A DNA stretch of 36,571 bases from a virus. The stretch covers positions 1-36,571 of the IMG/VR virus record IMGVR_UViG_3300002223_000017; one strand, given 5' to 3'. Shown piece by piece: positions 23,934 to 35,781 of this stretch. Position numbers and translations under genes: made by a program. Position 1 is the first letter of the stretch. Each line of letters opens with the position of its first letter. The notes under the pieces were generated by a model. It was not told where the DNA came from, searched no databases, and was given only the letters and a program-made list of their open reading frames with translations.

Positions 23934-23961
23934 ATTATAACTTATATTTGCAGTTATCAAA
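23934..23961 (-). promoter_or_regulatory. Promoter upstream of the portal gene
   Basis: TATAAT reads on the minus strand at 23939-23934, with TTTGAT 16 bases upstream (23961-23956). It overlaps the 3' end of the HNH gene and may restore transcription of the head genes after that insertion. Confidence 0.4.
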
Positions 23962-24624
23962 GTGATAGCGAGCCATTGCATTAATACCTCCCGACTTATT
24001 ACAATGAGGACATTCTGATTTTCTATAAGATGCTCCAGTTTTTCTAAATGATATCTTCAATTTATGATCATTTGACAATTCTTTCATTTTTTTACCTTTC
24101 TTAGCTAATGATATCTTTGTCTTTGTGTCATTGGAAAGTTTTTTGCCTTTGTGTATCATAGATATTTTAATTTTTTGCTCATCAGAAATTTTTTTACCAG
24201 TGCCTGCTTGTCTTATCTTTTCTATAGCTTCTTTGGTATGCTTGTACCCTTTATTAGCTATAGATAAAAGTATCTTGGTATCTTCGTTTGTTTTATGTCC
24301 TAATCTATGTTTACAATTTTTCATTACTTCACTATGTGCTTTACGTGCCTCTTCAAAACCATAACTATTAAAATATCCTTTTATGTTCCTATAGCCCCTA
24401 AAACTGCTAAAAGCAAGTGCCATAGAGCTATCTCTGTATATTCTCCAAAGCAACCAATGCGCTACAAAATGCTCACGCGCTGATAATCTAACTAAATTGC
24501 TTTTATCATTACTCCCACCATGCGACTTAGGGATAATATGATGTTTTTCAGTGTAAGTTTCTTTTAGAAGTGCATTGTTTTGTCTATTGGTAATTAATTC
24601 GTTGTAGATTCTTTGATAGTTCAT
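23935..24624 (-). CDS. HNH homing endonuclease with NUMOD3-like repeats
   Basis: Residues 28-56 carry the HNH core: HHI, then GGSNDKSNLV and AREHFVAH. Repeated short modules of the GKKISDEQKIKIS type (NUMOD3-like DNA-binding repeats) fill about 115-195, and a C-terminal CPHC zinc motif follows. The gene is free-standing between terl and the portal, both intact. The ATG at 24624 is the preferred start: an in-frame GTG at 24681 lies within the pseudoknot leader and has no ribosome site. Expression is likely damped by that pseudoknot. Confidence 0.88.
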   Translation of the reverse strand: MNYQRIYNELITNRQNNALLKETYTEKHHIIPKSHGGSNDKSNLVRLSAREHFVAHWLLWRIYRDSSMALAFSSFRGYRNIKGYFNSYGFEEARKAHSEVMKNCKHRLGHKTNEDTKILLSIANKGYKHTKEAIEKIRQAGTGKKISDEQKIKISMIHKGKKLSNDTKTKISLAKKGKKMKELSNDHKLKISFRKTGASYRKSECPHCNKSGGINAMARYHFDNCKYKL

Positions 24625-24630
24625 TGCAGA

Positions 24631-24688
24631 CCCCACGTCTATGATATTTTGTAGTAGGTATGACGTGGGGGAAATACCCACTACAAAA
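24631..24688 (-). ncRNA. SD-sequestering H-type pseudoknot leader (copy 1)
   Basis: Read on the minus strand: stem 1 pairs 24688-24675 with 24660-24647 (14 bp, one G-U), and stem 2 pairs 24670-24662 with 24639-24631 (9 bp, all Watson-Crick). L1 is 4, L2 is 1 and L3 is 7 bases. The last strand of stem 2 ends in GTGGGG, which serves as the Shine-Dalgarno, 6 bases before the ATG of the homing endonuclease. Same plan as the element at 29438-29500. Confidence 0.75.
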
Positions 24689-24703
24689 CCTCATAACACA
24701 GTA

Positions 24704-24709
24704 ATTATA
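24704..24709 (-). promoter_or_regulatory. -10 box before the HNH pseudoknot leader
   Basis: TATAAT on the minus strand. A start about 7 bases later would place the 5' end of the RNA a few bases before stem 1 of the pseudoknot. A TTGATT is 15 bases upstream. Flanking GTAAT/ATTAC repeats surround the box. Confidence 0.5.
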
Positions 24710-26588: not shown

Positions 26589-26663
26589 GCGAATATAGCT
26601 TAAAAGTAAAGCGTTTGGTTTCCAACCAAAGGACGAGAGAGCGTTACTCATCTATTCGCTCCA
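26589..26663 (+). tRNA. tRNA-Gly(TCC)-like gene with an atypical T-arm
   Basis: Acceptor GCGAATA (26589-26595) pairs perfectly with TATTCGC (26653-26659), followed by discriminator T and encoded CCA (26661-26663). T8-A9, a 4-bp D-stem (26598-26601/26609-26612) and a perfect 5-bp anticodon stem with loop TTTCCAA (anticodon TCC at 26621-26623) are all in the right places. U73 fits tRNA-Gly. The 22 bases for variable loop plus T-arm lack the TTCRA loop and pair poorly. The 3' 20 bases overlap, antisense, the end of the mom-like gene. It may be degenerate or a special tRNA. Confidence 0.6.
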
Positions 26664-27363
26664 TATCTCTAACCCATTCCCCTTTATACATTCCGATATT
26701 TAACTCATTTATTTTACTAAATGGTATAAACTGCCCTGTAAATCTTTCTTTTGCTTTTGGATTTATAAAATAGATGTACTTGTACATATAGCCTATTAAT
26801 GGCTTCCAACCTATAAAACATTCATCTAGGTATTTACGCTCATTTGAATATCCCTTAGCTTTCATTTCTTTTGTATATTTGTTTTTTTGCGAAGGGCTGA
26901 AATTAATAAAGTGTGTTTTTTCTCCATTTGGAAGTTCTATAATTCGGTTATTTTCTTTTATCTGTGTTAAATAAAAATTACTAGCTTGATAAATTGTTCC
27001 GTGTCCACATTGTGTTCCGTCTGCAAAACTAACAACCCATTCAATCTGTGGAGCATTTTTCTTCATCCATTTAAAAGCCATAGCTATAGCTCTTGATTCT
27101 GCGAATCTTGGAAGTGCATCGCTAAAAGCCATCCGATTTAGCTCTAGCATTCCGCTCCATTCTGTACCGCTTACAAGCGGTAGCATTTTGCGTTTATCAG
27201 TAGGGCTTCCAAATTGCATTGCCCCTAATAATAATCCCTTGTAAAATACTCCGAAGTTTAAATTACTATTTTGAACAACTTTACCACTGTAATGATATTT
27301 TTTTACGATTTTATCTGCCTCTGTTTTGGCTATTGGTTTAATTATTATCTCTTTAGCTGACAC
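26644..27363 (-). CDS. Mom-like DNA adenine modification protein
   Basis: The sequence follows the Mom family plan of GNAT-like proteins: KKYHYSG (21-27), a FGVF strand (37-40), ELNRM (74-78), ESRAIA (89-94) and SFADGTQCGHGTIYQ (112-126). In Mu, Mom converts adenine in phage DNA to a carbamoylmethyl form that blocks restriction. The start is GTG with a GAGG site. Its 3' end overlaps the tRNA-like gene on the other strand by 20 bases. A ParB-N protein is encoded just upstream. Confidence 0.85.
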   Translation of the reverse strand: MSAKEIIIKPIAKTEADKIVKKYHYSGKVVQNSNLNFGVFYKGLLLGAMQFGSPTDKRKMLPLVSGTEWSGMLELNRMAFSDALPRFAESRAIAMAFKWMKKNAPQIEWVVSFADGTQCGHGTIYQASNFYLTQIKENNRIIELPNGEKTHFINFSPSQKNKYTKEMKAKGYSNERKYLDECFIGWKPLIGYMYKYIYFINPKAKERFTGQFIPFSKINELNIGMYKGEWVRDMERIDE

Positions 27364-28549: not shown

Positions 28550-28828
28550 CTAACCTAATCTACCATTAATCAAATCATCGGAATAGGCTCGCTTCAACCC
28601 TTCAAACTGCATGTCTTTTCTTGCAATAGCATTCTCATATTGAGTGAGCATCTTATTTTGCTTTTCGATGTGTTGTTGTAGTTTGTAAACGGTTGAGTTA
28701 GCAATACCTAAACGTCGGTTAATATCCTCATTATCATCATGTGATAATTGTAGCTCTATTTCTAACGCTTCTGCATAAATCTCTAATAGTTCAATATCAT
28801 CACGTAGTTTTCGTTTACTTACACTCAT
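28550..28828 (-). CDS. Hypothetical coiled-coil protein (92 aa)
   Basis: It has two long charged helices (about 5-32 and 45-82) with a break at NSTVYK. The end of the upstream gene overlaps its start by 4 bases. Function unknown. Confidence 0.65.
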   Translation of the reverse strand: MSVSKRKLRDDIELLEIYAEALEIELQLSHDDNEDINRRLGIANSTVYKLQQHIEKQNKMLTQYENAIARKDMQFEGLKRAYSDDLINGRLG

Positions 28829-29016
28829 ATAATCACCTTTTTATTAGTCTCAATACGTCGGGCAAAAGGTGAATTAAAACCCGACTTATTCAAACTATTA
28901 TGACCTCTTAACCTATCTTGCGAAGCTACCATTGGCACCTTATCAGAAAAGAGGAACCTTTTATGAAACACACTATTGCATACTAGACGAATTCGGTCTT
29001 CTGCGGTGTGCTTCAT
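28825..29016 (-). CDS. Hypothetical basic protein (63 aa)
   Basis: A short, Arg/Lys/Asn-rich protein with an ATG behind a weak CGGAA site at the end of a structured leader. It overlaps the next gene by 4 bases. No family was recognised and the reading frame rests on operon position alone. Confidence 0.55.
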   Translation of the reverse strand: MKHTAEDRIRLVCNSVFHKRFLFSDKVPMVASQDRLRGHNSLNKSGFNSPFARRIETNKKVII

Positions 29017-29136: not shown

Positions 29137-29430
29137 TTATAAAAGTTCAATTTTTCTAATTCCTTCAATCTTAGTAATATGCCCTTTTTTAAGCCAGTTT
29201 TTAGAGCAATTCTCTAGTAATAAAAACATGATTGGCTCATCGCTTAAAAATCCACCAAATGTAAGCTGATTTTTTTCATTTTCAATACAACACACTATTT
29301 CAGCGATAAAAAATGTATTCTCATCACTATAAAAATATCTTTCAACTTTTACCTTATCACCTATTTTAACCCCTAGTTTGTTTAAATATTCCACTTGTTG
29401 TTTATATCTGATTTGTGATTTCTTTTGCAT
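29137..29430 (-). CDS. Hypothetical protein under pseudoknot control (97 aa)
   Basis: The ATG at 29430 is chosen because GGGAG lies 7 bases before it; the ATG at 29448 lies inside the pseudoknot and lacks a site. The protein is beta-rich with an SH3-like or tudor-like order: GVKIGDKVKVERY, then IAEIVCC and LTFGGF strands. No known family was recognised. It shares its leader plan with the homing endonuclease gene. Confidence 0.65.
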   Translation of the reverse strand: MQKKSQIRYKQQVEYLNKLGVKIGDKVKVERYFYSDENTFFIAEIVCCIENEKNQLTFGGFLSDEPIMFLLLENCSKNWLKKGHITKIEGIRKIELL

Positions 29431-29437
29431 TGCAGGA

Positions 29438-29500
29438 CTCCCATCCATAAGTTGATAAAGAGATAGGAGGATGGGAGGTCGTAACCTATCCCTCTATCAA
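29438..29500 (-). ncRNA. SD-sequestering H-type pseudoknot leader (copy 2)
   Basis: Read on the minus strand: stem 1 pairs 29500-29485 with 29467-29452 (16 bp, two G-U), and stem 2 pairs 29477-29469 with 29446-29438 (9 bp, perfect). L1 is 7, L2 is 1 and L3 is 5 bases. The last strand of stem 2 ends in GGGAG, the Shine-Dalgarno, 7 bases before the ATG. The sequence differs from copy 1 (24631-24688) but fold, L2 length, SD position and the TGCAATG ending are the same. Confidence 0.75.
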
Positions 29501-29514
29501 ATTATTACAGTCTA

Positions 29515-29520
29515 ATTATA
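29515..29520 (-). promoter_or_regulatory. -10 box before pseudoknot copy 2
   Basis: TATAAT on the minus strand. Transcription starting about 7 bases later would place the RNA 5' end a few bases before stem 1. ATTACAG (29504-29510) and CTGTAAT (29522-29528) are a 7-bp inverted repeat around the box, which could be an operator. Confidence 0.5.
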
Positions 29521-35683: not shown

Positions 35684-35781
35684 AAGCTTTTTAAGTTGGT
35701 ATATAGTAGCTCAATGGTTAGAGCGCGCATAGACAGTCTGGATCGGGTTCGAGTCCCGCTATATACCAACTCAAAGAGCTT
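35684..35781 (+). tRNA. tRNA-like element lacking an anticodon arm
   Basis: A D-arm (GCTC 35709-35712 with GAGC 35721-35724, loop containing GG) and a T-arm (CGGG/CCCG with loop TTCGAGT, 35744-35758) are typical of tRNA. The stem enclosing them is 23 bp long (35684-35706 with 35759-35781) with one A-C mismatch and one G-U, where a tRNA acceptor has 7 bp. The 19 bases between the two arms cannot form a 5-bp stem with a 7-nt loop, so there is no anticodon. CCA is encoded at 35766-35768, but inside the helix. It is more likely a tRNA-like domain of a larger RNA than a working tRNA. Confidence 0.5.

What the first reader, a model, noticed from the sequence alone, without database searches (positions are those of the whole stretch)
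29438..29500. Second, sequence-unrelated copy of the pseudoknot leader
A 16-bp stem 1 (two G-U) and a perfect 9-bp stem 2, L2 of 1 nt, GGGAG in the last strand, 7-nt spacing and TGCAATG ending repeat the architecture of the HNH leader, but the base sequences are different. Two independent instances with preserved pairing indicate a real structural class of cis-regulator in this phage, maybe responding to a ligand, temperature, a ribosome or a phage protein.
Basis: partly seen in the sequence, partly recalled or inferred. Interest (0 to 1): 0.8.

Follow-up and report, generated by a model that had tools for sequence, protein, structure and literature searches.

The report
Switch-like RNA leader of homing genes
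Just before the start codon of several selfish DNA-cutting genes in this group of phages lies a short RNA element whose letters change freely while its three competing helices are preserved; it probably limits how much of the gene's protein is made by hiding the ribosome's landing site.

Summary
The minus-strand stems at 29500-29438 exist as described and are not chance (dinucleotide shuffles do not reach them). They belong to a wider class. A structure scan of 2.0 Mb of viral loci found about ten sequence-diverse members in related or unplaced phage contigs, plus four looser ones. Most lie before homing-endonuclease genes (HNH-NUMOD3, GIY-YIG-NUMOD3, AP2/HNH); others before a C5 methyltransferase and two small orphan ORFs. 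Layout: TATAAT, 6 nt, purine (predicted +1), A, L1, B, A', B' (holding the Shine-Dalgarno), about 6 nt, ATG. A:A' and B:B' pair with their own partners in 94% and 99% of positions, but with other members' partners in about 50% (0 of 20,000 permutations); G-U outnumbers A-C 24:1, so the sense RNA is the object. Best reading: a bistable translational leader (stem 1 + helix 3 versus upper stem 1 + stem 2, SD buried), related in logic to T4 RBS-hiding hairpins but built differently and absent from Rfam. The translational effect and its timing are inferred, not shown.

The parts
29515..29520 (-). -10 hexamer TATAAT of the leader's own promoter
   Evidence: Same element in 11 of 12 leaders (TATACT in the other), 12/12 with a purine (9 G) at the 7th base after it (9/12 G has p about 6e-5 at 20% G).
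29508..29508 (-). predicted transcription start (+1, G)
   Evidence: Inferred from spacing; not mapped.
29485..29505 (-). segment A, 5' strand of extended stem 1 (4 bp, mismatch, 16 bp)
29478..29484 (-). L1 (TTACGAC)
   Evidence: Sequence; not conserved between members.
29469..29477 (-). segment B (CTCCCATCC), anti-Shine-Dalgarno strand of stem 2, lying in the loop of stem 1
29447..29467 (-). segment A', 3' strand of extended stem 1; runs directly into B'
29438..29446 (-). segment B' (GGATGGGAG), 3' strand of stem 2; holds the Shine-Dalgarno GGGAG
29435..29446 (-). alternative helix S3: GGAT-GGGA-GTCC, with the SD in the loop
   Evidence: S3 stem with SD in or at the loop in 9 of the 10 core members plus L055; own partner beats foreign partner in all but 12 of 20,000 permutations.
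29137..29430 (-). ORF of 97 aa driven by this leader, no known family
   Evidence: AlphaFold model unreliable (pLDDT 51).
24704..24709 (-). -10 hexamer of the HNH leader; predicted +1 G at 24697
24631..24696 (-). HNH leader: A 24696-24674, L1 24673-24671, B 24670-24662, A' 24661-24640, B' 24639-24631
23935..24624 (-). free-standing HNH-NUMOD3 homing endonuclease (phrog_655, MobE-like)
28833..28900 (-). third, weaker instance in the window, before ORF 28550-28828: B' AAAAGGTGA then TTAT-ATG; no promoter at the usual place and no S3
   Evidence: the orthologous gene in L073 has the same layout with a different stem-1 sequence (L073:10166-10242).

Best explanation
A promoter-coupled, bistable 5' leader RNA that limits translation of homing-endonuclease and similar cargo genes. 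The RNA starts at the base of stem 1. State I: full stem 1 (A:A', about 21 bp) traps the anti-SD segment B in its loop, and the SD in B' sits in the 4-6 nt loop of the small local hairpin S3; this state should form first during transcription and be permissive. State II: the lower part of stem 1 opens and B pairs with B' (upper stem 1 + stem 2, a true pseudoknot), burying the SD. A crude energy count favours state II, so the likely outcome is a short burst of translation from new RNA followed by shut-off. Shown (by computation): the element, covariation of stems 1 and 2, S3, the SD inside B', the promoter and its spacing, the RNA strand. Inferred: the effect on translation, which state dominates, and the timing.
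For: Ten non-redundant core members with unrelated or diverged sequences keep both helices: own pairing 94.4% (S1) and 99.2% (S2) versus 50-52% with foreign partners, 0 of 20,000 permutations. G-U versus A-C in S1 is 24:1, pointing to the sense RNA. B' holds the SD 6-8 nt from ATG in most members (10 in L055). S3 puts the SD in a loop in 9 of 10 core members; 12 of 20,000 permutations match it. TATAAT-6 nt-purine directly before stem 1 in 11 of 12 (the other has TATACT). L3 is near 0 in most core members, so full S1 excludes S2. Rough energies: nested state I -24 to -31, state II -31 to -40 kcal/mol with an assumed +8 for the pseudoknot. Homing endonucleases of T4 are known to be held down by RBS-hiding RNA structures (PMC2988022).
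Against: No expression, probing or start-site data. Pseudoknot energies are crude. Two looser members (L048 before a GIY-YIG gene, L076 before a primase) keep the architecture but lie 38 and 63 nt from the start codon, so SD hiding cannot explain those; L048 hides its SD in a separate hairpin (read by eye). S3 could be a second OFF state rather than a permissive one. The ON-then-OFF order is inferred from folding order only.
Confidence: 0.55

Rival explanations
1. Plain RBS sequestration: the leader simply keeps translation low at all times (stem 2 and S3 both OFF), with no meaningful switching; stem 1 serves as a 5' cap against RNA decay.
For: Low expression is the known rule for phage homing endonucleases (PMC2988022). 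Stem 1 begins at the predicted 5' end. H. pylori aapA3 uses transient hairpins to keep the SD closed during transcription (PMC6733600).
Against: In S3 the SD lies mainly in the loop, not the stem. The lower part of stem 1 is conserved although it competes with stem 2.
Confidence: 0.25
2. Factor-gated switch: a dsRNA-binding host or phage protein (for instance RNase III) holds or cuts the two-turn stem 1 and so sets which state forms, as in lambda cIII.
For: Stem 1 is close to two helical turns in nearly all members without sequence conservation, which suits a general dsRNA binder.
Against: No site or factor identified; analogy from memory; no paper on this found in the library.
Confidence: 0.15
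3. A DNA-level feature (recombination or insertion site, cruciform, endonuclease target) that happens to lie before the gene.
For: Nearly the same promoter-plus-leader DNA (91% over 88 nt) stands before unrelated ORFs at different places in two phages, so the block itself moves.
Against: G-U 24 to A-C 1 in S1; SD and start-codon phasing; promoter spacing.
Confidence: 0.04
4. Chance inverted repeats.
For: None.
Against: Shuffles and partner permutations.
Confidence: 0.01

Closest known systems
RBS-sequestering hairpins of T4-type homing endonucleases (I-TevI/II/III, segB, Aeh1 mobE; PMC2988022)
   Same: Structured leader hides the SD of a phage homing-endonuclease gene; HNH and GIY-YIG members on both sides.
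   Different: There a single hairpin forms on read-through RNA and a late promoter inside it makes RNA that lacks the 5' arm. Here the promoter lies outside, the RNA is predicted to keep the whole of stem 1, and three interleaved helices compete.
Metastable SD-hiding structures of H. pylori aapA3 toxin mRNA (PMC6733600) and the MS2 maturation-gene leader (cited there)
   Same: Competing SD helices formed in order during transcription.
   Different: Different topology; no antisense RNA or long-distance 5'-3' pairing here; MS2 (ON then OFF) is the closer analogue in sense.
Lambda cIII two-state mRNA with RNase III (from memory)
   Same: Phage leader with two alternative folds, SD free in one.
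   Different: No RNase III dependence tested; unrelated sequence and topology.
T4 gene 32 translational pseudoknot (from memory; PMC535899 treats the topic)
   Same: Pseudoknot in a phage 5' leader.
   Different: There it is a nucleation site for the autorepressor gp32, upstream of the RBS; here the SD itself is a strand.
HNH/TnpB-associated guide RNAs (IscB omega RNA, reRNAs)
   Same: Structured RNA next to an HNH-type gene.
   Different: Here the RNA is the gene's own 5' leader with changing sequence, before unrelated gene families including a methyltransferase.

Membership tests
T4-type homing-endonuclease RBS hairpins | SD paired in an RNA structure before a phage homing-endonuclease gene | tested here: met
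   B' contains the SD 6-8 nt from ATG; HNH, GIY-YIG and AP2/HNH genes. Pairing is predicted and covariation-supported, not probed.
T4-type homing-endonuclease RBS hairpins | promoter placed so that its RNA lacks the 5' arm of the inhibitory structure | tested here: not met
   TATAAT lies 7-10 nt before stem 1 in the core members; predicted +1 at or before its base. Start not mapped.
Classical H-type pseudoknot | both stems formed together with loops long enough to cross them | tested here: not met
   Full stem 1 of 20-24 bp with L3 near 0; possible only if the lower stem 1 opens.
Any Rfam family | score above the gathering threshold | tested here: not met
   No match for the leaders; best E 0.09-0.6 far below thresholds.
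Ligand riboswitch | conserved unpaired aptamer core | tested here: not met
   L1, L2 and loops are not conserved; nearly every paired column changes.
Bistable or metastable translational leaders (MS2, aapA3, cIII) | two alternative SD conformations of comparable stability | tested here: inconclusive
   Alternative helices conserved; energies rough.
Bistable or metastable translational leaders (MS2, aapA3, cIII) | measured change of translation between the two folds | not testable with these tools
   Needs reporters and probing.

The most novel reading that the evidence does not exclude
A new, mobile RNA family: a promoter-plus-leader module of about 90 nt that spreads between phage genes, has no conserved sequence in its stems, and acts as a ligand-free, self-timing translation switch that gives selfish genes a brief burst of expression.
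Probability: 0.3. Interest if true: 0.85.

Novelty: new variant of a known kind. Interest (0 to 1): 0.72.

Why it matters
It is a covariation-supported RNA family that sequence searches cannot see, because only the pairing is kept. It ties at least three unrelated homing-endonuclease families and a methyltransferase to one regulatory design, and it makes a general question (can folding order alone time phage gene expression?) testable with a 75-nt leader.

Tried and rejected
Protein relatives of the 97-aa ORF: none in IMG/VR; its DNA: none in phage records; AlphaFold model too poor to use. Named phages carrying relatives of the HNH and AP2/HNH genes: six loci fetched; the genes overlap or closely follow their upstream neighbours and no leader of this class was found. 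First 50 kb of two Campylobacter phages, tried because the promoters look Campylobacterota-like (impression, untested): no members. The 29016-28825 leader has ordinary hairpins only (by eye). TGCAATG as a motif of its own: chance frequency. The elements at L073:7051 and L079:7158 look like another class and were set aside.

Full report
OBSERVATION. The feature lies on the minus strand before a 97-aa ORF whose likely start is 29430. The sister leader before the HNH gene (24689-24631) has the same layout and unrelated sequence. A scanner that tolerates mismatches shows that stem 1 goes on past one mismatch to 21-23 positions in both, so that A' runs straight into B' (L3 of -1 and 0). In six dinucleotide shuffles of the window, both strands, nothing scored above 47.5, against 64.5 and 61.

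SURROUNDINGS. The HNH gene is a free-standing homing endonuclease (Pfam HNH and NUMOD3, PHROG 655 'homing endonuclease'), with T4 MobE-like relatives in many phages. It sits between terL and portal; in the relative L054 (94% identical TerL) the same interval is about 50 nt and holds no such gene. The 97-aa ORF has no known relatives.

MORE MEMBERS. TerL relatives gave a nearly identical copy of the 29.4-kb leader in L055, 91% over 88 nt covering only promoter to SD, but behind the portal gene and before an unrelated 91-aa ORF: the block moves without its gene. Other members are L072 (GIY-YIG-like, NUMOD3), L077, L215, L212, L213, L216 and L054:3059-2988 (AP2/HNH type) and L143 (C5 DNA methylase). 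L216's gene lacks its N-terminal part and its start region is decayed. Over 2.0 Mb of fetched loci, scoring with promoter and ATG, the core members caught by that filter scored 59 or more and everything else 47.5 or less; 3.4 Mb of shuffles gave two hits, at most 39.5. That filter misses L072, L213 and L216, which were found by other scans. Part of these loci was fetched with a pattern taken from the leader itself, so the count is not a frequency; L077, L215 and L212 were also reached through their proteins, and the HNH, GIY-YIG, L213, L216 and L054 leaders lack that pattern.

COVARIATION. In ten non-redundant core members, A pairs with its own A' in 94.4% of positions and with another member's A' in 50.1%; B with B' 99.2% versus 51.6%; none of 20,000 permutations reached the observed values. 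Nearly every column shows two to five pair types. Among 275 S1 positions (13 members) there are 24 G-U and only 1 A-C (p about 1.5e-6 for equal chance), so the sense RNA is under selection. Caveat: segments were delimited by eye from scanner output, which selects for pairing (and scores G-U above A-C); the shuffles are the control for that.

PROMOTER. Aligned on the -10 box, 11 of 12 leaders have TATAAT and one TATACT; the seventh base after it is G in 9 and A in 3, and stem 1 begins within a few bases of it in all but one. The RNA is thus predicted to begin at the base of stem 1. Start sites are not mapped.

THIRD HELIX. MFE folds of the leader show a small hairpin after stem 1 with the SD in its loop, for example GGAT-GGGA-GTCC, CAGTT-GAGG-AACTG, AAGTC-GTGGAG-GACTT. 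It changes in step between members; 12 of 20,000 permutations match the observed score.

MECHANISM. With L3 near 0, full stem 1 and stem 2 exclude each other (geometric argument, inferred). Either stem 1 + S3 form (B trapped in the loop, SD in a small loop), or the lower stem 1 opens and B:B' forms (SD buried). Rough energies favour the second by about 4-14 kcal/mol with an assumed +8 kcal/mol for the pseudoknot. Because stem 1 and S3 are local and are made first, I expect a permissive nascent state that refolds to a closed one. This order and its effect on translation are inference. Two looser members (L048, L076) have the layout far from the start codon, which the SD model does not explain; L076 could be a leader left behind after loss of its gene (speculation).

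COMPARISON. T4-type homing endonucleases are held down by RBS-hiding hairpins that late transcripts avoid by starting inside them (PMC2988022); this design keeps the whole of stem 1 and differs in topology. H. pylori aapA3 and MS2 are the nearest timed-folding precedents (PMC6733600). Rfam has no match. Literature searches found no description of such a leader; the library lacks most subscription papers.

Noticed in passing
window 35690-35775 (+): tRNA-like sequence (D-arm and T-arm motifs) closed by a 17-bp helix and apparently without a normal anticodon arm; missed by ARAGORN and Rfam.
   Followed up: no
window 26589-26660 (+): Rfam tRNA match (46.4 bits) on the strand opposite to the neighbouring genes, between terS and a Mom-like gene; ARAGORN does not call it.
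   Followed up: no
L073:7051-7130 and L079:7158-7232: Another interleaved-stem element, shared by two phages with different stem sequences, in which L1 also pairs with L3; in L073 it lies 59 nt before a 259-aa ORF. No counterpart found in the window by motif.
   Followed up: partly
window 28833-28900 (-) and L073:10166-10242 (+): A similar SD-hiding leader before a small coiled-coil-like gene, overlapping a preceding short ORF in the window, with stem 1 of wholly different sequence in the two phages.
   Followed up: partly
window 26644-27363 (-): Mom-like DNA modification gene in a terminase-type phage (Pfam Mom, E 5e-53).
   Followed up: no
L216:2849-2990 (+): Leader retained before an AP2/HNH homing gene that has lost its N-terminal part: possible gene decay with the leader still foldable.
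   Followed up: no
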